A stretch of 64,000 nucleotides of DNA from IMG/VR virus record IMGVR_UViG_3300044970_002549, positions 27,158 to 91,157 of that record; one strand, 5' to 3'. The number at the start of each line of letters is the position of its first letter. Position 1 is the stretch's first letter. The notes under the pieces were generated by a model, which was given only the letters and a program-made list of their open reading frames with translations, did not search any database and was not told where the DNA came from. Shown here piece by piece: positions 13,601 through 56,910 of the stretch. The stretch is from a virus. A program made the translations under genes and the position numbers.

Positions 13601-14734
13601 TCAGATTTCCCCGTGCAACCTCATGTTTTCTACGATTCTGAGGCCAATCCACTCAGCAACCAGGCTGGCCACCCCGTTTCCGCAAGCATCTGCTCGTACT
13701 GTTTCATTGGTTCTGTCAAGAAGTGGGTGCTCCATGCACGCGCCTCCCTGGATTAGGTGCTGACCAAAGACGCCAGACGAAGAGAACGCAGTTAGCGTGC
13801 TGTACGCACCGTCCTCTGTCCAGCGTTCGAAGAATCCGTTGTTCTGGCTGCGCTCAATCTTCCTGAACATCCTGAGCTCTGGTCCGTTGGAGTTTGGAAG
13901 CTCTATGATTTGGTGCGTTTGACGTGTAGACGTCGGAATCCTTTGACGAGTGTGTGCCCGTCCGGCCACCCCATTAGGCGCTCCATCTCCAGTGTAGTCA
14001 GTCTTCGCAAAATCAAGCGCTGCTGGTCGATGGTCTCGAGAATCTTCTGGTGGAGGTCCGGCGTAAAGCCGATCTTCGGACCATTGGGTGTACTCACGAC
14101 CGAGCGCCCAAGGTAGTTCTGGGCCTCCTCTCGCGTCAAGAAGAACCTCGCCGGCGCGAGCGGTTCCAAGATGTCCAAGAAGGAAGACTCGACGGCGCGG
14201 CTGCGGCACTGGCCGCCGTCCCCCATGCAGTTCACAGCTTCCGGCGCTCGACGCATCAATAGTTCGCCACGAAACGCCATACCCGAGTTCGTCCATTTCC
14301 TGGAGGAGTCGCCCCATGTCTCTTCCTTGATTTGATGTGAGGAGTCCCGGGACGTTTTCGAGAAGAATCCATTCTGGTGCAAAGGACTCAACGAGGTTGA
14401 GGAACGAGAACGCGAGGACCGAACGCTCACCTGTAAACCCCTTTCTCTTCCCTGCCGAACTTAGGTCTTGGCACGGGAAGCCAGCTGACCAAAGAGTAGC
14501 ACCTTGCCAGGCTTCTCCAGTTTTTTGGGTGCTGACTGTTGTAATGTCGCCAAGGTTTTTTAGGTGTGGCCAGCGCGCAGCAAGCACCGCAGATTGATAT
14601 GCAGAATTTTCGCACATGGCAACGGTAGTCCATCCAGCAGCCTCGAGGCCTAGGTCTATTCCGCCGACACCGCTAAATGTGGAGAAGTGGCTAAGACTTT
14701 TTACCGCGCTTTTTCTTTGGCTTTTTCTCATCAA
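13601..14734 (-). pseudogene. DNA cytosine-5 methyltransferase with disrupted frame
   Basis: In the main 377-codon frame lie motif I (FSGVGGIDLGLE, about 20-31), motif IV with the catalytic PCQ (about 87-89), motif VI (ENVPGLL, about 126) and motif VIII-like PQPRRRVFLLG, then at the far end the motif X-like GNGVASLVAEWIG. Motif IX (RRLTTLEMERLMGWPDG) is instead encoded in another frame, open over 13903-14430. Intact protein would need one frame change at about 14050-14130 and a second near 13910-13960. This is either two sequencing or assembly indels or a recently inactivated gene. An intact enzyme would methylate cytosines, likely to evade restriction. Confidence 0.75.
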
Positions 14735-14834
14735 GTTCTATTGTATCATCTGAAATCGGCATCGGTCCTGATGCCCGCAAAACTTTGCATGGCATGCAGA
14801 AACACGGCTGCCTGTGATAGAGCTTGTCGGCCAT
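14691..14834 (-). CDS. Tiny Cys-containing protein (47 aa)
   Basis: ATG 14834 overlaps the portal stop as TAATG; 47 codons end at TAG 14693-14691. The N-terminal part holds CFCMPC, a compact Cys cluster, and the C-terminal part is Lys-rich (KKPKKKRGKK). A metal-binding, DNA-contacting peptide is plausible. It overlaps the methyltransferase start by 44 bases, so translation is coupled to the portal. Confidence 0.55.
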   Translation of the reverse strand: MADKLYHRQPCFCMPCKVLRASGPMPISDDTIELDEKKPKKKRGKKS

Positions 14835-16993
14835 TAGCTTTTTTCGCGGGCCTCAACCTGGCGCATGATCTTTCCAGACCACGACTGACCTGGGTTTCCG
14901 CCCCAAAGCGCCCATGCAATTCTTCCGGCTGATGGGTACCCGGTTTCGCCTTGTGACCATCCCTCGCCCTGTTTGTCGACTTCGTGTCGGGCAAGATAGG
15001 CTCGCATCTTGCGCACCCTCGCAATAGTCATCTTGTTTCCCGTAAGCATTCTGGCAGTAACTTGGCCAGGGCCAATCCCTCCGCGGCCAAACTCTTCTCG
15101 CCAATCAAGTCCTCTGCGCGCTTCGGCCTGAACCGACGATGGCACGTTAAGGTTGATTCCGGAATAGTCAGCGGCCTTATGGGCTTGCTTTATGTCTTCC
15201 GGAGAATGAACGTTTCTCACCCCAACAGAGCGGTATGCATCTCTTGCGGCGGCATCATTCTCAACCGCCTCGACAACATTTCCAAGCTCTTTCATAACTT
15301 TTGACATCTTGTACTTCTTGAACTGAAGACCAGCACCGGCAGGGAAGTCACTCATGTACAGCTCGTCGTGAGGAACATCATTTGCATCAAGCCAGTCCCT
15401 TGTTTCTTCAAGGCGCTTGGTGGATCTGGCACTGATGATAACGATGCGGTGGGTCTCAGACTTTCTTTGAAGATAATCGACCACCGACTCGTTTGGCTCA
15501 TCCGAACCGTCGCTGATTGTTAGGGTTCCGTCAATGTCGCTGACAATAATCGGGTCTCCGGCATCCTTGGAGCTCTGTGACTGGGCTGCCTCCTCTGGCG
15601 TGTTGTCTTCAACCATTCCTTCGCCCTGGTCGGGAGAAGGAACTCCTTGCGGCTGGTTTGCGCTAGGTGGATTGCCTCCATCTGGGTCGTCTTCAGGGCC
15701 CTCTACGATGTTCTCCAAATACTCAAGATAAAGACTCATCGGCATGTAGCCTTGCGGTGTTGGAAGCCAGATCTGCTCGCCCATTTCGCCAACCCCGTCT
15801 TGCCCACGCTCTCGAAGCGCGTCGTTCAGTCGGAGCCACGGTAGCCCGGCAAGTGCCTGCTTGTAGTAAGAAGACATTTCTGTCTGCGTCTGCCGGCCCA
15901 TGTCGGTATAGGCAAAGCGAAGGTTTTCGTCATAGCGCCATACGATTTCCCTTGTGATGTACTCGGCAATCAAATCAAGAAGCGGCGCAATGCCGACGTC
16001 CTGCGTGAATGCAGCCCCAACGTCTGCGGTGCTGCGGTTCACATCAAATCCAATACCGATGTCCTGCGGCTGAACGCCGAATACCGCGCAGATCTTTCGG
16101 GCAAGGTAGACCTGCCACTCCATGAACTGCATGTCGCGGTTAGAAGACGCAAGCGGCATCCACTGCATGCCCTTGCCGCCACCGGTAATTGCTATTTGGC
16201 TTCGTCCTGCAATTTCTGCGTCCCAATATGCGCGGAATGAATCTACTTGGTCCGCACGAACGCCCTCGCCAAGATGCAAAACGCCTGGTGGAGCTGCTGC
16301 CATGACTGCTTTTGCATTGTATGCCGCTGCCGCCAAGTCTGCCTCAATCGTTTCGGAGAGAACTTCTAGGGGCGAGAGGCCAAGCGGTGAGTAGGTGACA
16401 GGGTTGGAAATAATTACAATGAGTTCTTTATTAAGGAATCGTGCAACCTCTCTTCCATCGTCATCAAACTCGAAATACCTAGGGGCTTCGGGGTCGCTTC
16501 CGTCCCACCCTGAATCGAATACGATTCTTGCGGCGTCCTTGCTGTGAATGGCTGCAATCGGCTTGTTGCTTGTTCCGATTCTTCCGCCGTTGGTGGTCTC
16601 TACCTCAATCGCACCCTGGTCAAGCACCAGAATGTCCTCGATAACAGGCTCAATTAGGGAGCGCCACGACTCCATCTTTTGATTTGGCTTTCTGAGCAAA
16701 TCCTTGACTAGTGCAACCTTGCGTGCATTTACTGGGCTGTCTGAGTCCATTGCAACAATGTCCCATTTCGCTCGGCTGACCTGAGTCCTCCGCAGGTTGA
16801 TGGCGGCTCTAATCCATGGGTTGTTTCGGGACCACCTGCGAAGCTGCTGGGTGCTTCGCTTCGCATGATGCGTTACGCCAGCCACACCCCTGGCATATGG
16901 CGCGGAGTCGTATTCCGGAACAGTTGTGATTGCATTGGCGACTATATCGCCGCCACCAAAGAGTCGGCTGAGAAATGAGCGGCGCTCTGCCAT
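14834..16993 (-). CDS. Portal protein fused to a HAD phosphatase domain
   Basis: 719 residues. The first 450 resemble HK97-type portal proteins: the N-terminal 'RSTQQLRRWSRNNPWIRAAIN' and 'SPLGLSPLEVL', 'ICAVFGVQPQDIG' and the wing/stem pattern. The portal forms the dodecameric DNA channel of the capsid. A Pro/Gly linker leads to a HAD domain at about 478-625: DIDGTL (motif I), ISAR (motif II), KKYK (motif III) and ENDAAARDAY (motif IV). This resembles phage polynucleotide kinase 3'-phosphatases. The last 90 residues hold ARHEVDKQGEGW and PSAGRIAWALWGG, a domain seen at the end of other phage head proteins. Transcribed away from the capsid genes, which is unusual. Confidence 0.85.
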   Translation of the reverse strand: MAERRSFLSRLFGGGDIVANAITTVPEYDSAPYARGVAGVTHHAKRSTQQLRRWSRNNPWIRAAINLRRTQVSRAKWDIVAMDSDSPVNARKVALVKDLLRKPNQKMESWRSLIEPVIEDILVLDQGAIEVETTNGGRIGTSNKPIAAIHSKDAARIVFDSGWDGSDPEAPRYFEFDDDGREVARFLNKELIVIISNPVTYSPLGLSPLEVLSETIEADLAAAAYNAKAVMAAAPPGVLHLGEGVRADQVDSFRAYWDAEIAGRSQIAITGGGKGMQWMPLASSNRDMQFMEWQVYLARKICAVFGVQPQDIGIGFDVNRSTADVGAAFTQDVGIAPLLDLIAEYITREIVWRYDENLRFAYTDMGRQTQTEMSSYYKQALAGLPWLRLNDALRERGQDGVGEMGEQIWLPTPQGYMPMSLYLEYLENIVEGPEDDPDGGNPPSANQPQGVPSPDQGEGMVEDNTPEEAAQSQSSKDAGDPIIVSDIDGTLTISDGSDEPNESVVDYLQRKSETHRIVIISARSTKRLEETRDWLDANDVPHDELYMSDFPAGAGLQFKKYKMSKVMKELGNVVEAVENDAAARDAYRSVGVRNVHSPEDIKQAHKAADYSGINLNVPSSVQAEARRGLDWREEFGRGGIGPGQVTARMLTGNKMTIARVRKMRAYLARHEVDKQGEGWSQGETGYPSAGRIAWALWGGNPGQSWSGKIMRQVEAREKS

Positions 16994-17699: not shown

Positions 17700-17804
17700 C
17701 ATATTGTCCGCGTGATGCTTTGTTTGGTAAAGAATCCTAAACATTCATCATTGTATTCGATGTGTCTCTATGTCCATCTTGTGATATTAGAGATTATTAT
17801 TGTA

Positions 17805-17857
17805 TTGACGCGGCCGTCATCGGACATCAATATGTCCGGGTACCTAGGGAGGTCATT
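17805..17857 (+). promoter_or_regulatory. Promoter and operator-like palindrome of the structural operon
   Basis: TTGACG 17805-17810, 17-base spacer, CAATAT 17828-17833. A perfect inverted repeat, CGGACAT / ATGTCCG with a CAAT centre (17821-17838), covers the -10 and would let a dimeric repressor block the promoter. The ribosome site AGGGAGG precedes the GTG at 17858. Confidence 0.6.
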
Positions 17858-19594
17858 GTGGATTTTAAAGTCTTTACAAACGCCCTTAAGGCGTATGAGG
17901 GGCCAAATGGCGACCTCTTTGTTACCGGCACAACCTCATCGACAATCAGGGATCTGCACGGCGATGAGATGACTCTAAATGCCATTCGCACGATGGCCGA
18001 TACCGCAAAGCAGAATATGACGATCTTCTTGAACCATAACTATATGGTTCCCGAAGATCTTTTCGGCTCGGTTACTGATGCACGAGTTGTAAAGCGCTGG
18101 GACAGCGAAGCCGGTTTCGAGGTGTACGACCTTGACATTGACGTACTTGTCTGCAAGGAAGACGAAAACCCAGAGGCCATGCGGGCATACAAGGCCATTA
18201 AGCGCGGGGTAAAGCTTGGGCTTTCTATTGGCGCGCGTGTGGATAGGGTCTCAAAGAAGAAAGACGCAAGCACTGGTGAGGACACGTATGTAATCGACTC
18301 CGTAAAGCTTATGGAGGCCTCAGTAGTCGGAATTCCGGCTAACCAGCGCTCATACCTACAGAATGCCGTCAAGAGCCTCAAGGCCGCCGAGAAGTCGGGG
18401 GATTTTGAGATCTCTGAGAAAGCTGCCCCTGATTCGGTGCGTGAAGGCGACTTTGTTTCATGGGGCTCAAGCGGCGGGACTGCTCGTGGTCGCGTTGAAC
18501 ATGTTATGCGCGAGGGCACTCTGGGAGTTCCTGATTCTGACTTCAAAATTGAAGCCACACCGGAAGATCCAGCTGCTCTTATCCGAATCTGGAGGCCAGA
18601 AGGAGACAGCTGGCAGGAGACCGACAAGCTTGTCGGGCACAAGGTTTCTACGTTGAACAAAATTGAATCTTTGAAGTCTATCGTTGAATCCGTCTTGGCA
18701 GGTGACCAGGAACTGGAAACACAGCGGTCATCGCAGCCTTTTGCTTCTTTGGCCCAGGAAAGGTCTGAGTCGGAGTCGACTGAGACGTCAAAGGCCCAAG
18801 AAGCGGGCGATACTGAAGGAGAAAATATCGTGGGAGACACTGAGAAGGCTACCCGGGTGACCGTCACTGTCACGCAAAGCGACGACAAGGAGACGAAGAA
18901 GCCGGAAGTTAATGAAAACACCCAGGATGAAGCTGTTGCAGCCGAGTCCGATGTCGCCAAGTCTGAGCAGGAAGCCCCTGCCGAGGAGACGCCAGCAGTC
19001 GATGCCACCCCAGAGGTGGAGCCGGTTGCCCCAGAGGCTGAACCTGCGGTAGAGGCACCTGTCGAGACTCCCGTTGAGGAGTCGGCTGCGCCAGTCGCGG
19101 AAGAGGTCAATGCAGCGCACGAGGCCCTTCAGGCCCTTGGCGCCGTACTTGTCCACGCAAGCGCCGACGAGCGCGCGCAGATCTTGTCAAAGGTTGCAGC
19201 GTTCGCAGATGGCGAACCAGCAGCTGAAACCGAGGCCGAAGTAGCCGAGGTTGTTGTCACCGAGGGTGAAGCAGATGCCGTTGAGGCGCCTGAGGTCACT
19301 CTGGAAATTGTTGAGGCCAAGGGCCTTGACGAAGTAACTGCCATCGCCAAGTCTGCGCTGGATGCAGCCTTTGCGGCACAGCAGGAGGTCAGCGCGATCA
19401 AGTCGCAGCTCACCGAACTGGTTGCCCAGAAGGCCAAGGTCGAGTCTGATCTTGCGAAGGCGCTTGATGTCGTCGGTCGATTGATGGATCTTCCATCGGG
19501 TCGAAAGGCATATTCGAGTGCATCCGTAAATTCTGGGACGAAGGCCCCATGGCTTTCGCCCGTAATCCAGCGCATGCTGGACAGCCAGGAGTAA
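17858..19594 (+). CDS. HK97-type prohead protease with scaffold-like extension
   Basis: 578 residues from GTG 17858, chosen because AGGGAGG precedes it and the longer frame (17762) starts before the predicted +1. The N-terminal 170 residues are a Herpesvirus-type serine protease: catalytic His60 in FLNHNY and Ser123 in LGLSIGAR. A Tudor-like module at about 195-265 (REGDFVSWGS, GRVEHVM, LVGHKVSTL) follows. Residues 300-560 are Glu/Ala/Val-rich and then coiled-coil, like a scaffold. The protein probably assembles as an internal core, matures the capsid and digests itself. Directly followed by the capsid gene. Confidence 0.85.
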   Translation: MDFKVFTNALKAYEGPNGDLFVTGTTSSTIRDLHGDEMTLNAIRTMADTAKQNMTIFLNHNYMVPEDLFGSVTDARVVKRWDSEAGFEVYDLDIDVLVCKEDENPEAMRAYKAIKRGVKLGLSIGARVDRVSKKKDASTGEDTYVIDSVKLMEASVVGIPANQRSYLQNAVKSLKAAEKSGDFEISEKAAPDSVREGDFVSWGSSGGTARGRVEHVMREGTLGVPDSDFKIEATPEDPAALIRIWRPEGDSWQETDKLVGHKVSTLNKIESLKSIVESVLAGDQELETQRSSQPFASLAQERSESESTETSKAQEAGDTEGENIVGDTEKATRVTVTVTQSDDKETKKPEVNENTQDEAVAAESDVAKSEQEAPAEETPAVDATPEVEPVAPEAEPAVEAPVETPVEESAAPVAEEVNAAHEALQALGAVLVHASADERAQILSKVAAFADGEPAAETEAEVAEVVVTEGEADAVEAPEVTLEIVEAKGLDEVTAIAKSALDAAFAAQQEVSAIKSQLTELVAQKAKVESDLAKALDVVGRLMDLPSGRKAYSSASVNSGTKAPWLSPVIQRMLDSQE

Positions 19595-19598
19595 AAAA

Positions 19599-20831
19599 AT
19601 GAGCGAACTTAACGAAAAGTTGCAGGAAGTGCAGAAGGGTCTGGATGACCTCGGCACTGCCCCGCACCTTGTTGGCCGTGTTGCCGACGAGAACCTCGAT
19701 GTTGCCGAGGCCTATGCGACCCAGCGCGAACTTCGCAAGAAGTTCTCAAAGATGAGCCGCACTGAGCTTGGCGAGATCCTTGACATCCAGGCAGCCCGCG
19801 AAGGCGGGAAGCAGGCTTCTTCGGACGTTCTTAACCGCCTTGCGGTTGCGAACCCGAACATTGCCAAGCTTCTTGACTCGACGGGTGGCACGGCTCTTAT
19901 CCGTCAGGACCTTGAGCCAATTCTTTACGCTTTGTTCGTGAAGAAGTTCCCATTCTTTGAGCGCCTCCGCAAGGAGCCTGCAAACGGCCTCGTGCATGCG
20001 TTCAATCAGCAGACCGCCTATGGCGATGCGGTGTTCCAGACTGAGACCGGAACGGTCACGGACGACACGAACACCTATAGCCGAGCAACGACCAACGTGG
20101 CCGTTCTCGCAACCCGCCGTGGCATTACGCTCAAGAGCCAGTTTGCGATCACGCAGGGCGGCGCTCCAGGGCAGCAGGGTCTTTCGACCGAGCTTGAGGG
20201 TGGCGTTGTTGCCATTGCCGCAAAGCTCCAGAAGACGCTCTTCCAGGGTAACGCTGACACTACGACGAACGCAGGTACGGCAACTGAGCTTGGCGCTTAC
20301 GACGCTAACGGTTTCACCGGTCTCCGCAAGCTCCTCGGAGCAGGGACTGGAACGGCCCAGATCGTCAACAAGGGCACGGCTGCCTATCTCGCAACGATCA
20401 ACAACAATGTTGCCAGCATTTTGAATGCCGGTGGCAACCCGTCAGCGATCCTTTGCTCGCCAACGGACTATGCTGGCCTGGTGAATGAGCTGACGAACCT
20501 CGTCCGCTATAACGCACCTGCCCAGACGGCCCAGAACGCCGGCGCGACCTTCGGGTCAGTCGTCACGGCTGCTGGTGAGCTCCCGATCCTTGCCGTCCCT
20601 GGTGACAGCATTGGGTCGTACACCCTTAGCTCGGTGGACTACCGCGATATGTACGTGGTAGACGAGTCAGTTTGGTCGATGCCTTACCTCGGTTCGGACT
20701 CGATCACTACGCTCGAAATTCCGGTTGGAACGAACGGTTCCCTTTCACGCCTTTACATCATGTACTGCATGTATGGTCTGGCGAGCAAGGCCAACAAGTT
20801 CAACGGGAAGATCCGCGTCACGGTCGCGTAA
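19599..20831 (+). CDS. Major capsid protein (HK97 fold)
   Basis: 410 residues, directly downstream of the protease with ribosome site CAGGAG. The N-terminal 100 residues are helical and charged, like the delta domain removed during maturation. The body has the HK97-type pattern: GTALIRQDLEPILY before the N-arm, QTAYGDAVFQTETG in the E-loop region, spine-helix segment TELEGGVVAIAAKLQ, and C-terminal P-domain/A-domain strands. The family is assigned from length, context and pattern. A cleavage site near residue 95-105 is likely but cannot be placed exactly. Confidence 0.88.
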   Translation: MSELNEKLQEVQKGLDDLGTAPHLVGRVADENLDVAEAYATQRELRKKFSKMSRTELGEILDIQAAREGGKQASSDVLNRLAVANPNIAKLLDSTGGTALIRQDLEPILYALFVKKFPFFERLRKEPANGLVHAFNQQTAYGDAVFQTETGTVTDDTNTYSRATTNVAVLATRRGITLKSQFAITQGGAPGQQGLSTELEGGVVAIAAKLQKTLFQGNADTTTNAGTATELGAYDANGFTGLRKLLGAGTGTAQIVNKGTAAYLATINNNVASILNAGGNPSAILCSPTDYAGLVNELTNLVRYNAPAQTAQNAGATFGSVVTAAGELPILAVPGDSIGSYTLSSVDYRDMYVVDESVWSMPYLGSDSITTLEIPVGTNGSLSRLYIMYCMYGLASKANKFNGKIRVTVA

Positions 20832-50897: not shown

Positions 50898-50994
50898 ATT
50901 TTTCTCCTATACTCTGACCCACCGCACTTGCGGTTCGTGTCAAATCATACCACATTAGAAGGTCTTCTACTGTGATCTGAATGTTATCCGACAT
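50869..50994 (-). CDS. Possible 41-residue peptide gene
   Basis: ATG 50994 follows GGAGGACAAA, an excellent ribosome site, and reads MSDNIQITVEDLLMWYDLTR before stopping within the next gene. The first 13 residues resemble those of the downstream 61-residue protein, so it could be a partial duplication whose frame has been lost. It overlaps the downstream start by 29 bases. Confidence 0.35.
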   Translation of the reverse strand: MSDNIQITVEDLLMWYDLTRTASAVGQSIGEKYVGRWKSIN

Positions 50995-51745
50995 TTTGTC
51001 CTCCAAAATTTTGACCAGTGAGGCGACATGCCTCCCGTATTACCGAGTTTACATTACAGTCCAACCCTTCGTCAACATAGGTCAGCTTGATAATGTTTGG
51101 GTGTCTTTTGACAATCTCTGCCACCACCTCTGGGTTTTGATCTGTTTCAATTCTAGCAAGTGCAGCTGGCCCGCCTGGCTCTAGGGCATCAGAATGCAGA
51201 ACACTTAACCACAGATTAGAAAACTCCGCATTAACTTCTAGGAGTTCAATAAACGTTTTGTCTATAAGGAAATAGTCATCATCACCATGAGCGCCCAGAT
51301 AGGACTGCATTGCGCTAATCCAAATCAGTGGAATTCTTGAACCTTTCGTTGAGGCCATAAACCACCCGCACGCGCCCGGAACCCCGACCGGCTCGTGCGC
51401 CTCCCATCCCTTCCCTGCATTAATCCACTTCTGTCCTTGATACATCCAAAAATCCTCCCGCAAGGGGAGCCACTCATCTAATGGTCGCAGGCACATAACG
51501 CTAGCATCAGTCCACACGCCCCCATACGCATGCATAAGGTATAGGCGAATTAGGTCCGAGCGCTTTTGTGGTGAAAGATATTTAGGGGCAATAGCCTCTG
51601 GCACATAGTCTGTGATGTTTTTTTCTGTCAGGCGAATTATTTCCCAATCTGGGTTTAATTTGATCCATGAATCTAGGCAAATCCTTGCGACACGTGGGGC
51701 CCGATCCCATCCCTGAAACCATAAGATCCAAATTCTTTTAATCAA
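50984..51745 (-). CDS. Capsular-polysaccharide-type glycosyltransferase
   Basis: 253 residues. Carries the Caps_synth/DXD-sugar-transferase core: RSDLIRLYLMHAYGGVWTDA near residue 62, followed by GVWTDASVMC, and W-rich acceptor region. The D-A-S form instead of DxD is usual for the capsular subgroup. It begins MIKRIWILWFQGW, the typical first strand. Likely adds a sugar to a glycan or a virion protein. Part of a run of glycosyltransferases. Confidence 0.75.
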   Translation of the reverse strand: MIKRIWILWFQGWDRAPRVARICLDSWIKLNPDWEIIRLTEKNITDYVPEAIAPKYLSPQKRSDLIRLYLMHAYGGVWTDASVMCLRPLDEWLPLREDFWMYQGQKWINAGKGWEAHEPVGVPGACGWFMASTKGSRIPLIWISAMQSYLGAHGDDDYFLIDKTFIELLEVNAEFSNLWLSVLHSDALEPGGPAALARIETDQNPEVVAEIVKRHPNIIKLTYVDEGLDCNVNSVIREACRLTGQNFGGQNVG

Positions 51746-52826
51746 TTGGATAAGCCCCTACATTTGCATATTCGTATTGATTCCTTCTGACAAGGTTGTT
51801 AAACTTAAAGTACATTTTTCTGTTGGCGTCTCCAAGATATACCCCAGCATACGCCTCATATGCCTTAATTTTGTTTTTGTTATCTGGATTTGTAAAATAT
51901 TTCTGCATATTTTTATTAATTTCCTCAAAGATGTCCCCTGCTAATCCGACGCCCACAGCAAGGTCCTTAATGTTTGCCCTATCTCCATACTCTTCAGTTT
52001 TCTCCTCGCAATACATATGGAGAATTGGGCAGGTAACATACGGGTAAACTAGACTAAATCCATTGTCAATCAACTCAATTGACTGAACAATCTCCTCTTC
52101 CCAAAACAAAAATTCAGGGTGGAGCCCAACATACTGCACAAGAATCCTTGTTGAGAACATAAATGCACCAGTGACCTTTATGGCTGGTGCAAACCCCGTT
52201 TCGGTCACAAGCTTTTCTAGGTTCATTGTCACATGGCTCGGGCTTTTGTGTCTCCACCTTGGGATCGCGTCCTTTACCCACCACCAACCCGTCATCCAAT
52301 ACGGATAACCGACAACATCACTTTCACTGTAGTCAAGTTCGTAGTTTTTTTGCAATGGATACCAATAGGGCTCGGGAACTCCGGTAATAACTGTTCTCTC
52401 ATTGTTTGTTATTTTTAAAGCCCGGCTATGCGTTTCAATCAGTTTGCTGTCCCAGTCTTTTACGAAATAAGAGTGCGCGTCAACCTGTAGAACGTAGTCT
52501 TCGTCCCCGTACATGGAATACGCTGCATTTCTTCCTTTGCCAATCCCATAATTTTCTGCAAGTGAAAAATGCTTAATTATTACATTTGGTATAGAGAATA
52601 TGTCTGGAGATTCTTGCTGCTGGCTAGCGAATGACTCTTCCGTAGATATGTAAGCAACACCTATGGAGACGTCGTTATTTCCTGATCTGTTTTGCAGGCA
52701 CGACAATATAGTGACTGGGAGCTCGGAATCACGCTCCAATACGGATACCGCCACATAAATACTTTTTCTTACGGCGTTGCTGGGCATGTGTGTACGGATT
52801 GAGTTTTTACTATAGATGAATGCCAT
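51738..52826 (-). CDS. GlcNAc-type glycosyltransferase (PF11397-like)
   Basis: A 362-residue protein with SIYVAVSVLERDSELPVTIL, GIGKGRNAAYSMYGDEDYVL and LQVDAHSYF, matching the GlcNAc-transferase family where the DxD-like element is in 'LQVDAH'. Later KVTGAFMFSTRI and EEEIVQS fit the acceptor half. ATG 52826 lacks a clear ribosome site; ATG 52787 is an alternative. It overlaps the GT25 gene by 58 or 19 bases. Its base composition is visibly more AT-rich than the left half of the window. Confidence 0.72.
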   Translation of the reverse strand: MAFIYSKNSIRTHMPSNAVRKSIYVAVSVLERDSELPVTILSCLQNRSGNNDVSIGVAYISTEESFASQQQESPDIFSIPNVIIKHFSLAENYGIGKGRNAAYSMYGDEDYVLQVDAHSYFVKDWDSKLIETHSRALKITNNERTVITGVPEPYWYPLQKNYELDYSESDVVGYPYWMTGWWWVKDAIPRWRHKSPSHVTMNLEKLVTETGFAPAIKVTGAFMFSTRILVQYVGLHPEFLFWEEEIVQSIELIDNGFSLVYPYVTCPILHMYCEEKTEEYGDRANIKDLAVGVGLAGDIFEEINKNMQKYFTNPDNKNKIKAYEAYAGVYLGDANRKMYFKFNNLVRRNQYEYANVGAYPID

Positions 52827-53518
52827 GGTGGATTTACGCCAAGACTGTTGTTAAGGGATATCCCTGGCCGCGCAACAGCGCCAGCCTGAACAAAATCTGG
52901 GACCTTAAGGGCAGCCGCACTTATCTTTTCATATTTCCCCATTGATTGAACCCTGTCCCCGTGGCACCTTAGTCTCAATGGGTTGTCAGAATGATCATAT
53001 CCAATCATAAGGGGGACAAATTCATCCGCTGGTATAATGGCTTTTGGCGTATTCGCCCTGATGAGCGCCTCCGCTCCTTTTGGGGTAATAATGTACGAAG
53101 AAAGCCAGTAGGGATATCTTGGCTTAATCAGATCGTCGTCAATGCGAATAATTTTAGATGGAATATTTTCCGAATATCCAAGGTATAGGATGTCATATTC
53201 CTTTATGGCCCTTTCATAAAGTTCAAACCGCGGCTGAATTAGGGGTATCGCGTCGTCTTCTAGTATTAGAAGCGGCTCGTTTATTCGCTGGCAAACCCCC
53301 CAGGACTGAAGGTGGCTAACAAAACACGCAACCTCTTCGTCGGTTGTAATTTTACCCGTATGCGAATCTCTCCATTCGCGGTCTGCGCTCCATCCCTCAG
53401 CCCTAGCATCAGCAGCATTTATGGACGGCATTAAGTCAAATGGAATCCCGCGCATTGCCCAAGAAAAAGACTCAAGCCTGTCCGGTCTTGACTTAAGATT
53501 TATGACGCCTATCTTCAT
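52769..53518 (-). CDS. Family 25-type glycosyltransferase
   Basis: 249 residues. Starts with GVINLKSRPDRLESF, has 'VSHLQSWGVC' and LLILEDDAIPL, and DILYLGYSEN: the usual GT25 (LPS/collagen-type) arrangement with an EDD metal site. Galactosyl or glucosyl transfer to a lipid or protein glycan is the common activity. It overlaps its upstream neighbour as ATGA and is translated with it. Confidence 0.8.
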   Translation of the reverse strand: MKIGVINLKSRPDRLESFSWAMRGIPFDLMPSINAADARAEGWSADREWRDSHTGKITTDEEVACFVSHLQSWGVCQRINEPLLILEDDAIPLIQPRFELYERAIKEYDILYLGYSENIPSKIIRIDDDLIKPRYPYWLSSYIITPKGAEALIRANTPKAIIPADEFVPLMIGYDHSDNPLRLRCHGDRVQSMGKYEKISAAALKVPDFVQAGAVARPGISLNNSLGVNPPWHSSIVKTQSVHTCPATP

Positions 53519-54333
53519 TTAAATTCTTTCTTTGCCCAAAAGAATTTCTTGTATGGGGCCCTAAATACGCTATTGAGCCGTGCAAAGATTTTTAAACCGC
53601 CGCGCTCCAGTTCTGCTGCGTCTTCTTCTGAGTCAGAAATATATGACGACCAGGACTCCCTTTTGAAGGGAATCACCTGGGCTAAAGGTGTTCCCGCTGG
53701 AACAATCCCATCAAAATGAGGATCTTTGAACACCATCATAAAGTTGATTTGTGGCGCAAATTGGTCAGAATCAATTACCCCAGGGACTATTTCCCAATAC
53801 TTGCTCGGGTTGTTTAGCGGCTCAGTAATAATTACAGAATATCCCGGAGGTGTAATAATTCTCCATGGGGTAAAAACTTTTCTTAAGCGCTGGCCAGAAT
53901 TCTGGCATAGCGGGTGGGTCATGGCCTGTCCGTAGTCATGATGGCTTATTTCTAGGGACGGGATTCTTTCTAGCCGTCTTGGGTGCGTTGCCTCAATCAC
54001 CACCTCTTCTTGGGGGCAATCTGGAACGTTAGTGTTTAAGTCGCCAGTGTATGGCTTTACATACATTTCGGCAGTGGTAACAAGACCATATCCAAGCGTA
54101 AGCGAGTCAAGGATTGGAATGCACCGCTTGATAGTGGGCATTTCGTTTCCGTTCAATATGTTAATGCTGTCGTCGTTGTCGGCTAAGCCGTTAAATCCGC
54201 CGTGGGACGGCATATCCTTCCACCAGTCAGCCAGCATCTTTGACATTGGCCGGGGGAGCGACTCTGGGTTCACGTCAACATTGCCCCAGTGACCGTAGTT
54301 TGGAAATATGGCTATGCGCTTATCTTTGGTCAT
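53515..54333 (-). CDS. DUF6065-like protein A (272 aa)
   Basis: ATG 54333 overlaps the oxygenase stop as ATGA and is preferred over 54342. Shared with the copies at 56053 and 56910: WWKDMP near the start, CIPILDS, a TPPGYSVIITEPLNNP stretch, PGVIDSD, IPAGTPLAQVIPFKRESW and FFWAKKEF at the end. The central beta-rich core reads like a double-stranded beta-helix fold, but metal ligands are not obvious. DUF6065 members have no known activity. Located with oxygenase and glycosyltransferase genes. Confidence 0.6.
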   Translation of the reverse strand: MTKDKRIAIFPNYGHWGNVDVNPESLPRPMSKMLADWWKDMPSHGGFNGLADNDDSINILNGNEMPTIKRCIPILDSLTLGYGLVTTAEMYVKPYTGDLNTNVPDCPQEEVVIEATHPRRLERIPSLEISHHDYGQAMTHPLCQNSGQRLRKVFTPWRIITPPGYSVIITEPLNNPSKYWEIVPGVIDSDQFAPQINFMMVFKDPHFDGIVPAGTPLAQVIPFKRESWSSYISDSEEDAAELERGGLKIFARLNSVFRAPYKKFFWAKKEFK

Positions 54334-54953
54334 ATGACGCACACTGAATCATGGGCAATAACAGCTGCAATTCTTTGATTTCCCCATAAATCGGACAGGA
54401 AATTATTCCCCTTGTTGGCGTAGATCTGGCTTAATCCTCGCATTTTTTCCCCAGTGTGCCACATTGGCATTGTGTACCTGAGACCGCTGGTCACGGGCTC
54501 CACTTCATGTAGGTACTCCCAGCCGCCGCTTGGGAAAATAACGGCGGATAGCGGCTCAGGGGAATACCGCACATTATGATTTGGGAACACTATGTCCCCA
54601 CCAGTAAATTCTCCACCGAGATAAATCACGCTGCTGAAAATAATGTGTTCAGAACCAGTGTGGGAGTCAGTATGCCCCCCCGCCTCTGCCCCAGCACCCC
54701 AAAGGGAGGCGTGACATTGGGTTGTATAGAGCGGCGGAACCCATCCAAATTCTTGTCGGTGGACATCTAATATTTTGTCAGAATACTTTTTAAGAATCAT
54801 CTGCGATTCAGAATTATTTTCAGAAAGCACAGAAATGTTTGGGTTATGGTTGTCAATAAAAGGTATGCGCGGACCAGAGTCAATAAGGGAAATCATTCTT
54901 GCGGCGTCTTCTGGCTCTACAAAATTCTTAATTATTTTAATCCTGTGGCTCAT
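54330..54953 (-). CDS. 2OG-Fe(II) dioxygenase (prolyl-hydroxylase-like)
   Basis: 207 residues. Iron ligands are His94 and Asp96 in GGHTDSH, His149 in WEYLHEV, and Arg159 in SGLRYTM binds 2-oxoglutarate. FTGGDIVFP sits on the central strand. This fold hydroxylates Pro or Lys in proteins, or other substrates. Beside glycosyltransferases and fibre genes, hydroxylation of a virion protein before glycosylation is a reasonable hypothesis. Confidence 0.85.
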   Translation of the reverse strand: MSHRIKIIKNFVEPEDAARMISLIDSGPRIPFIDNHNPNISVLSENNSESQMILKKYSDKILDVHRQEFGWVPPLYTTQCHASLWGAGAEAGGHTDSHTGSEHIIFSSVIYLGGEFTGGDIVFPNHNVRYSPEPLSAVIFPSGGWEYLHEVEPVTSGLRYTMPMWHTGEKMRGLSQIYANKGNNFLSDLWGNQRIAAVIAHDSVCVI

Positions 54954-54954
54954 T

Positions 54955-55854
54955 TTATTCCTCCAGACTGCAGGTTAAATGACGAGTCTTTGTGTTTCTT
55001 TCGCATTTTATGATTGTCAGGACAAGGCTTCGGTAAAGATCCACTTCTAGCTCTTCCTCGCGATAATCCATGTGCTTCCATGTCGTTATCATATCCGAGA
55101 ATACCACATTTGCCCCAGACTCTATAGCCAGCCTCCTGAGAAGGCTAGATGGGGTTGGGGAATGAAAAAGGTTTCCGGCAAGCATATCCTGAAGGTACTG
55201 CGACTCAGTTTTTGCAAAACCCCAGTCTATGATTGCTAGGTAGGTTGTTCCCACCCTTGATAGTATGTTCCTAATGTAGTTTGATTTGGCGGGAGAATAG
55301 GCAAAAACTCCGCTTGCTGGGTCAACATCGCCGCAGGAGTTATCGTCAAGTTGACAGTTCGGAATATTCTCATAATACGGCACTCCGTTATGCCCAACTG
55401 CTAGCTCTTGCACCGCCCCCGAGGGGTAGAGCCTTCTCATCACCGTAAACGGGAGCGCGTCAAGGAACTGATTTGCAATGACCACTGCCGTCCCGCCGTC
55501 CCTTTCGGGAATTAACCCATCATCAATTATTGAGTCACAATGCCCCTTGCGCCGAAGAATCGCCTGAAGCTTTGGGCTAAATTCCGAGCAGACCACCCTT
55601 GGGCTTGATTCCCAGCTCATCAAGCTTAGCACTCCAGAGGATAGCGCCCCAGCCCCGTCCCCGTCAAAACGAAGAGTATCTATTTCCCCGATAGAGGATA
55701 TCCACCGCCCCAGTGCGCGCTGAAATACTGGACCGTTTGAGTTGGAGTAAAGCCCTTCAACGACCCAGTTTATATCTCCCTTATATTGACCAGATTCCCC
55801 AGTTAATCCATTCTGGGCAATAAACCTATATCTATGGGGTAGGTTTGGTGTCAT
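54955..55854 (-). CDS. MidA-like protein (SAM methyltransferase superfamily)
   Basis: 299 residues from ATG 55854; a TTG at 55875 is the alternative. Motifs like MidA/NDUFAF7 methyltransferases: LRFDGDGAGALSSGVL (cofactor-loop-like), IANQFLDALPF, LAIIDWGFAKTESQYL and the C-terminal helix. In MidA enzymes the target is an Arg in a partner protein. The first glycine-rich motif is shorter than usual. It could modify the neighbouring proteins; a substrate cannot be assigned. Confidence 0.65.
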   Translation of the reverse strand: MTPNLPHRYRFIAQNGLTGESGQYKGDINWVVEGLYSNSNGPVFQRALGRWISSIGEIDTLRFDGDGAGALSSGVLSLMSWESSPRVVCSEFSPKLQAILRRKGHCDSIIDDGLIPERDGGTAVVIANQFLDALPFTVMRRLYPSGAVQELAVGHNGVPYYENIPNCQLDDNSCGDVDPASGVFAYSPAKSNYIRNILSRVGTTYLAIIDWGFAKTESQYLQDMLAGNLFHSPTPSSLLRRLAIESGANVVFSDMITTWKHMDYREEELEVDLYRSLVLTIIKCERNTKTRHLTCSLEE

Positions 55855-56056
55855 TGCTTTGACCCCACTTTCCAATTGGACATTCGGAATGCGGAAGTTG
55901 AGCCTTTAGCTTCATAAAGCATAGGCACTTCTTGCACTGACCAGAAAGACGGATAAAGTGATCGCAAGACCTGCAAGCGCTGAGGCGCTCTTCAAGCACC
56001 CCGTCTTTCACTCTTCCAATGTTTGGGTTAAGCATGTCCCACGGCTTTGAACTCAT
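55832..56056 (-). CDS. Zinc ribbon protein, DUF6171-like (74 aa)
   Basis: ATG 56056 overlaps the upstream stop as ATGA. CRSCDHF, then CKKCLCFMK and a final SECPIGKW give five Cys positions in the pattern of DUF6171 small ribbons. It starts MSSKPWDML. Such ribbons occur next to glycan-related genes. Role unknown; could be a metal-binding partner of the MidA-like protein, whose start it overlaps by 23 bases. Confidence 0.65.
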   Translation of the reverse strand: MSSKPWDMLNPNIGRVKDGVLEERLSACRSCDHFIRLSGQCKKCLCFMKLKAQLPHSECPIGKWGQSNDTKPTP

Positions 56057-56910
56057 TTTGAACCGCCAACTTCTTTCACTGACTCTCCGTGCATAACCGG
56101 GCACCTTCCCTCCGCGGGGATGCCGCTGGCTGGCTGGTGTTCAGTAATATCGTTATATGTCTTTTTCTTCCAGAATAGTTTTCGGTATGCACCGCCAAAC
56201 ACATTTCTAGTCAGTTGCACATATTTGGCTCGGTGGGATGGCTCAAACGGAAGCCTCTTGGCGCTCCACTCTTCCCTCTTTATTGGGATTATTTGGAATA
56301 TTGGCGTTCCCTTTTCAATGACCCCAGTAAATTTCTTGTCTAAATAAAATGTTATTTCTGATCGGAGTGGAAAATCATCAGAGTCTACAATTGCAGACAT
56401 TGTTCTAAATGGAAGATCATTTCGGTTTAGTGGATGAGTTATAAGAACCGACCACCCTTTAGGAACGCCAAACTCAAACGGCTGAATCCAGAGATATGGG
56501 TTTGGCTCGTACCCTTCTGGGGCCGGGAATCCAGACATAGAATTGGGGTTCCTCGGGCTCCTTACTGGCTCCCAGAGAAATTGCTGGGGCCATGCGATCC
56601 TCGTTTCCCCACGCTCATTCTTTGTTATCTGAAGGTCTGTTGAAAGCTCCTGGATGAATCCAGCGGTAAACGCATCAATAAGGGGCACGCACGCCTTAAC
56701 GGTGTGGTTGTACTCACTATTTTGCTGGTTAAATTTTTGCATTCCAGGAACGTATTGGGGAATGTTTTTATACCATTGGGGGATGTAGTCTTTTGCTGGC
56801 ATTGGATGAACAAAGCCGGTGCCCTCAAGCTGCAGCTCTTCTGGCCTCCATGTAACCGTCTTTCCTGTAGACCGATTAAAGAAAGACAAGATTGAATTTT
56901 TTATATTCAT
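56053..56910 (-). CDS. DUF6065-like protein B (285 aa)
   Basis: The most divergent of the three related copies: PQWYKNIPQYV, CVPLIDAF, GVPKGWSVLITHPLNRND, SAIVDSDDF and IEKGTPIFQIIPIKREEW correspond to the shared blocks. It has an additional C-terminal tail with RCPVMHG that is absent in A and C. It overlaps copy C by one base (TAATG) and the zinc ribbon by ATGA. Activity unknown. Confidence 0.6.
   Translation of the reverse strand: MNIKNSILSFFNRSTGKTVTWRPEELQLEGTGFVHPMPAKDYIPQWYKNIPQYVPGMQKFNQQNSEYNHTVKACVPLIDAFTAGFIQELSTDLQITKNERGETRIAWPQQFLWEPVRSPRNPNSMSGFPAPEGYEPNPYLWIQPFEFGVPKGWSVLITHPLNRNDLPFRTMSAIVDSDDFPLRSEITFYLDKKFTGVIEKGTPIFQIIPIKREEWSAKRLPFEPSHRAKYVQLTRNVFGGAYRKLFWKKKTYNDITEHQPASGIPAEGRCPVMHGESVKEVGGSK

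What the first reader, a model, noticed from the sequence alone, without database searches (positions are those of the whole stretch)
14834..16993. Portal protein fused to a HAD phosphatase domain
The portal continues into a complete HAD domain (DIDGTL, ISAR, KKYK, ENDAAARDAY) and then a small C-terminal domain. Portals are near-invariant in function, so an enzymatic domain here is unusual. Twelve copies would place phosphatase sites at the packaging vertex. It resembles polynucleotide 3'-phosphatases, so end repair of packaged DNA or action during ejection is conceivable.
Basis: partly seen in the sequence, partly recalled or inferred. Interest (0 to 1): 0.75.

Follow-up and report, generated by a model that had tools for sequence, protein, structure and literature searches.

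The report
Phage portal carrying a phosphatase-fold domain
In a large family of uncultured phages the DNA-gate (portal) protein carries an extra phosphatase-like domain inside its tail; the fold is always kept, but its catalytic residues have been lost at least four times, so the domain probably binds or spaces rather than repairing DNA ends as first proposed.

Summary
The fusion is real: one intact 719-aa ORF, on the MINUS strand, made of an HK97/SPO1-type portal (1-430), linker, capless HAD domain (477-605) and a small C-terminal domain (612-719). At least 139 IMG/VR stretches encode relatives; 64 distinct full-length sequences all keep all three parts, so it is not an assembly error. The HAD model matches the T4 Pnkp phosphatase domain (Z 17.0, 2.2 A, ~120 residues). 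The end-repair idea is weakened: the PNKP-specific arginine loop and two key acids are absent (motif IV is E-N-D, not DD), and motif-I aspartates were lost at least four times independently, each on several contigs, while fold, reading frame and purifying selection persist. HAD is the fastest-evolving part and is swapped as a cassette between near-identical portals; the small C-terminal domain is the most conserved part and also occurs, without HAD, on other portals and on prohead protease-capsid proteins. A PNKP-like HAD is separately fused to a prohead protease. Best reading: an internal head-assembly tail whose HAD module binds or spaces, possibly still catalytic in this lineage. New variant of a known kind; a 66%-identical full-length protein is already in UniProt, named only "HAD_like".

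The parts
14834..16993 (-). 719-aa portal-HAD-C-terminal-domain fusion gene (ATG to TAA)
15704..16993 (-). portal domain, residues 1-430 (PF04860; nearest solved structure phage 812 portal, Z 19)
15566..15703 (-). low-complexity P/E/D/Q-rich linker, residues 431-476, predicted disordered
15179..15565 (-). capless HAD domain, residues 477-605, T4 Pnkp phosphatase-like fold
15524..15538 (-). HAD motif I, D486-I-D488-G-T490
15425..15433 (-). HAD motif II, S521-A-R523
15317..15319 (-). HAD motif III lysine K559 (aligns with T4 K258)
15254..15262 (-). HAD motif IV, E578-N579-D580, non-canonical (T4: D277-D278)
14837..15160 (-). C-terminal small domain, residues 612-719, most conserved part of the protein; phrog_2859 N-part, shared with other portals and with S78 protease-capsid proteins
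17762..19594 (+). divergently transcribed prohead S78 protease with a Hva1-type TUDOR domain and acidic scaffold-like tail
   Evidence: gene order kept in 14 sampled relatives
19599..20831 (+). SU10-like major capsid protein

Best explanation
The gene encodes the phage's portal with an internal C-terminal tail. Shown: portal + linker + PNKP/LNS2-type capless HAD + a small, highly conserved end domain that recurs on portals and prohead proteases. Inferred: as in other portals the C-terminus points into the head, so about 12 HADs and end domains hang from the crown into the prohead; the end domain is a head-assembly module coupling the portal to the protease/scaffold/capsid precursor. The HAD is an exchangeable module inserted before it. 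In this phage's lineage it keeps the nucleophile, the acid/base and the motif II-III phosphate-binding residues and may still hydrolyse or bind a phosphate compound, but the role common to the whole family is non-catalytic: binding (perhaps a phosphate group of DNA or a nucleotide) or spacing the end domain from the portal ring.
For: 64 distinct full-length sequences keep all three parts. Domain conservation among 27 representatives: C-terminal domain 0.84, portal 0.76, HAD 0.61. At least four independent motif-I losses on a portal-only tree, with the GIEALY clade nested beside the window's clade; each loss is on several contigs. The dead HAD of the EPESIL-type clade, folded from its own 8 sequences only, still matches T4 Pnkp phosphatase best (Z 13.3, 2.4 A, 115 residues; next unrelated fold Z 8.2); hhalign of intact vs dead HAD: probability 97.7, E 1.6e-12, and 97.0, E 1.1e-10. 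HAD pN/pS 0.139 in intact and 0.187 in motif-I-lost pairs, both far below 1. K559 (K/R) is kept even where motif I is lost. The end domain occurs alone on portals of two families and on S78 protease-MCP fusions. Precedent: LNS2 of Nir1 lost the catalytic Asp and binds phosphatidic acid (PMC12419160). P22 portal C-termini point into the head (PMC4992974).
Against: In the lineages with intact motif I, catalytic residues are kept better than the domain average (R523 40/40, K559 K in 38/40 and R in 2, E/D578 40/40), which argues that catalysis still matters there. No structure of the end domain (low confidence in both models) and no direct evidence for its assembly role or for the tail's location.
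Confidence: 0.5

Rival explanations
1. Active polynucleotide 3'-phosphatase at the packaging vertex that repairs DNA ends during packaging or ejection.
For: Fold best matches T4 Pnkp phosphatase; motif I-III residues intact in the window protein.
Against: T4 R176 loop, D254 and D278 equivalents absent; motif I lost at least 4 times in relatives; a similar HAD also sits on a prohead protease rather than on a portal. Terminase-cut ends normally carry 3'-OH (own knowledge).
Confidence: 0.1
2. Active phosphatase acting on another substrate: a nucleotide or signal, or a host target after ejection, perhaps against a host defence, with cassette swapping reflecting host adaptation.
For: Catalytic residues strongly kept in most lineages; the HAD cassette is exchanged between near-identical portals (L239/L240 portal 1.00, HAD 0.73; L260/L264 0.99 vs 0.63); HAD fused to another head protein.
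Against: At least 4 lineages keep the fold without the aspartates; motif IV is non-canonical; no evidence of release or ejection.
Confidence: 0.2
3. Decaying passenger: an acquired HAD under relaxed constraint that is tolerated because it sits in a flexible tail.
For: Highest rate of the three domains; repeated motif loss; motif I partly deleted in one clade.
Against: Never deleted or frameshifted in 64 distinct sequences (though these were selected for full-length matches); pN/pS 0.14-0.19; fold kept after motif loss.
Confidence: 0.15

Closest known systems
Portal of Herelleviridae phage 812 (8qem, 8q7d) and other PF04860 portals
   Same: Portal fold over residues 17-364, Z 19
   Different: The matched portal chains show no HAD or end domain; 719 vs 563 aa
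T4 polynucleotide kinase/phosphatase, phosphatase domain (5uj0, 1rrc), and phage PNKs (EGole gp200, DatBoi gp111)
   Same: Capless HAD fold Z 17.0; DIDGTL, S-x-R, motif III Lys
   Different: No kinase domain; lacks the RSPYD loop (R176) and the D254 equivalent; motif IV EN instead of DD
LNS2 domain of Nir1/Nir2 (9jzp, 9jtz)
   Same: HAD fold Z 16.5; a HAD that lost its catalytic Asp and became a ligand-binding module (PMC12419160)
   Different: Eukaryotic, membrane lipid binding, extra Ig-like part
End domain of S-CBS1 and Roseobacter CRP protease-MCP proteins (phrog_2859)
   Same: About 50-56% identity in the small domain
   Different: There N-terminal of (TUDOR)-S78-MCP; here C-terminal of the portal after a HAD
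UniProt A0A6J5R7M5 'HAD_like domain containing protein' [uncultured Caudovirales phage]
   Same: 722 aa, 66% identity over the full length
   Different: Named only for its HAD; no description as a portal in the name
Portals fused to MuF (Brevundimonas phage Strzyga; L315, L323)
   Same: Portal with an extra C-terminal head domain
   Different: MuF instead of HAD

Membership tests
HK97/SPO1-type portal (PF04860) | Profile match above the gathering score and portal fold | tested here: met
   120.1 bits vs cut-off 39.1; Z 19 to phage 812 portal
HAD superfamily | Rossmannoid alpha/beta core with DxDx(T/V) at the end of strand 1 | tested here: met
   D486-I-D-G-T490
HAD superfamily | Motif II S/T and motif III K | tested here: met
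   S521 and K559
HAD superfamily | Canonical motif IV acidic pair (DD or GDxxxD) | tested here: not met
   E578-N579-D580; phage PNKs have DDR
PNKP 3'-phosphatase | Fold of the T4 Pnkp phosphatase domain | tested here: met
   Z 17.0, 2.2 A, 119-121 residues
PNKP 3'-phosphatase | Substrate residues equivalent to T4 R176, D254, D278 (list from own knowledge) | tested here: not met
   R176 loop absent, D254 equivalent is G555, D278 equivalent is N579
PNKP 3'-phosphatase | Linked or separate polynucleotide kinase | tested here: inconclusive
   No kinase domain in this protein; only a phrog_415 search was made in the 91-kb record, which may be incomplete, and it found no other match
PNKP 3'-phosphatase | 3'-phosphatase activity | not testable with these tools
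   Needs an assay
phrog_2859-type head end domain | Profile match and conserved RHEVDK / PSxGRIAWALWGG core | tested here: met
   E 6.7e-20; alignment

The most novel reading that the evidence does not exclude
PNKP-fold HADs with an E/D-N motif IV form a recurrent, swappable class of head-resident modules, mounted on portals or on prohead proteases together with one shared end domain, that sense or process a phosphate ligand (DNA end, nucleotide or host signal) during assembly or infection, with repeated conversion from enzyme to binding domain.
Probability: 0.2. Interest if true: 0.8.

Novelty: new variant of a known kind. Interest (0 to 1): 0.58.

Why it matters
Portals are among the most constrained phage proteins. 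A family-wide HAD appendage that keeps its fold but repeatedly loses catalysis is a clear natural series from enzyme to pseudoenzyme inside a virus capsid, and the end domain shared by portals and protease-capsid proteins is a candidate for the poorly understood step that couples the portal to prohead assembly.

Tried and rejected
Assembly error: rejected. Plus-strand reading: closed by stops. Fusion in cultured phages: INPHARED gives portal-only matches (at most about 25% identity among the listed rows) and no full-length match; the one fetched, Brevundimonas phage Strzyga, carries MuF instead of HAD. Relatives in GTDB genomes: none by pattern plus tblastn. A second HAD in the own record: none found with phrog_415. 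Sequencing error as the cause of motif loss: rejected, the same changes recur on 3-10 contigs. Papers on a portal-HAD fusion: none found in the open-access library, which does not exclude one elsewhere. Two weakly aligned UniProt entries (A0A6J5R419 'Prohead protease', A0A6J5PW45) may carry the HAD plus end domain, but their sequences could not be read here. No reliable fold was obtained for the end domain (pLDDT mostly 40-70 in both models), so its fold stays open.

Full report
Observation. The stretch 14834-16993 holds one open frame of 719 codons on the minus strand; the plus strand is closed by stops. Residues 60-394 match PF04860 Phage_portal (E 1.5e-34). Residues 481-607 match phrog_415 polynucleotide kinase (E 6e-11) and 582-717 match phrog_2859, unknown function (E 6.7e-20). 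Gene neighbours: a divergent S78 prohead protease with a TUDOR domain, then an SU10-like capsid protein. This order is kept in 14 sampled relatives.

Relatives. In IMG/VR 139 stretches encode a relative in the first scan; the best 80 match at 54-81% identity, nearly all over the full length. Further scans brought the set to 64 distinct full-length sequences, all with portal, HAD region and end domain; these were picked for full-length matches, so a rare loss of the HAD could have been missed. The fusion is a stable family trait. Cultured phages in INPHARED give portal-only matches with no full-length hit; one of them, Strzyga, has a portal-MuF fusion instead. A UniProt entry from metagenomic phage, A0A6J5R7M5, is 66% identical over its whole length and is named only HAD_like domain containing protein.

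Structure. The AlphaFold model of the window protein (29 sequences) is poor overall (mean pLDDT 58), but the HAD part is confident (about 85): five strands alternating with helices, no cap. VIA-align gives the T4 Pnkp phosphatase domain as its best match (Z 17.0, rmsd 2.2, 119-121 residues), then Nir2 LNS2 (Z 16.5) and lipin (Z 14); the portal part matches the phage 812 portal (Z 19).

Against PNKP function. In the profile alignment to T4 (numbering) and in an alignment with phage PNKs, D165, D167, S211, R213 and K258 have counterparts (D486, D488, S521, R523, K559). The R176 loop (RSPYD in phage PNKs) is missing, D254 aligns with G555, and the D277-D278 pair is E578-N579. That these T4 residues matter is my own knowledge. 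The domain has the same scaffold but fails the tested substrate features of the family.

Loss of catalysis with retention of fold. Among 27 representatives below 90% identity the HAD is the least conserved part (mean majority fraction 0.61, portal 0.76, end domain 0.84). On a tree of the portal part only (42 representatives), the motif-I aspartate pair changed at least four times: an 8-member clade (EPESIL, ESDNVL, DAEALL, with L247 keeping DID but without GT), a 4-member clade GIEALY nested beside the window clade (91/87), L268 DIQGTL and L038 EIDGVL. Each occurs on several contigs: 10 for GIE, 3 for DIQ, 3 for EID. The 8-member clade's tail, folded from those 8 sequences alone, again matches T4 Pnkp phosphatase best (Z 13.3, rmsd 2.4, 115 residues), the next unrelated fold being Z 8.2. 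Profile comparison of intact and dead HADs gives 97.7% (E 1.6e-12) and 97.0% (E 1.1e-10). Nonsynonymous change is held down in both classes: pN/pS for HAD 0.139 (intact) and 0.187 (lost), portal 0.053 and 0.043, end domain 0.086 and 0.063 (simple counting, with synonymous sites near saturation in some pairs). K559 stays K or R throughout. Some non-catalytic role thus keeps the domain. In the intact lineages motif residues are well kept (R523 40/40, E/D578 40/40), so activity there is possible.

Cassette exchange. Near-identical portals can carry different HADs: L239/L240 portal 1.00 and HAD 0.73, with nucleotide identity dropping most across residues about 441-630; L260/L264 0.99 vs 0.63; L247/L275 0.90 vs 0.30. 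I read this as recombination of the linker-HAD segment.

The end domain. It occurs at the N-terminus of S78 protease-MCP proteins in S-CBS1 and Roseobacter phages, of the DC31 protease, and as a 110-aa protein in PaBG. Of ten ORFs from that scan tested with Pfam, nine with the domain in the C-terminal part are portals, six PF04860 and three PF05136, with no HAD match. The tenth, L370, is end domain, HAD (DIDDTL, IDNDASARAAY), ferritin-like domain and S78 protease; L372 has the same without the end domain, and L375 has end domain plus HAD in a fragment upstream of a capsid-like gene. The end domain is thus a shared portal/protease module, and HADs have joined head proteins more than once.

Mechanism. 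Portal C-termini of P22 point into the head (PMC4992974); by analogy this tail should be internal (inferred). I judge most likely that the end domain helps couple portal and protease/scaffold during prohead assembly, and that the HAD is an exchangeable binding or spacing module, possibly catalytic in the window lineage. LNS2 of Nir1, which lost its catalytic Asp and binds phosphatidic acid (PMC12419160), is a precedent for a HAD turned binder. Confidence is moderate; none of the mechanism has been tested at the bench.

Noticed in passing
L370:3255-5372 (also L371, L372): Prohead S78 protease fused to a ferritin/Dps-like domain (PF00210, E 8e-15) and a PNKP-like HAD, with or without the small end domain.
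   Followed up: partly
L239 vs L240, residues about 441-630 of the portal: Linker-HAD segment about 73% identical at DNA level between portals otherwise about 88-100% identical: apparent cassette swap.
   Followed up: partly
window 17762-19594 (+): Prohead protease carries a Hva1-type TUDOR domain, as do Roseobacter CRP-811 protease-MCP and a Limnohabitans phage DC31 head-region protein.
   Followed up: no
window 50984-56910 (-): Cluster with glycosyltransferase, 2OG-Fe(II) oxygenase and endonuclease V-like matches.
   Followed up: no
window 13601-14734 (-): C-5 cytosine DNA methyltransferase just downstream of the portal; missing or moved in many of the sampled relatives.
   Followed up: no
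L216:2579-2911 (PaBG): The end domain as a stand-alone 110-aa protein next to a gene annotated RNA 2'-phosphotransferase.
   Followed up: no
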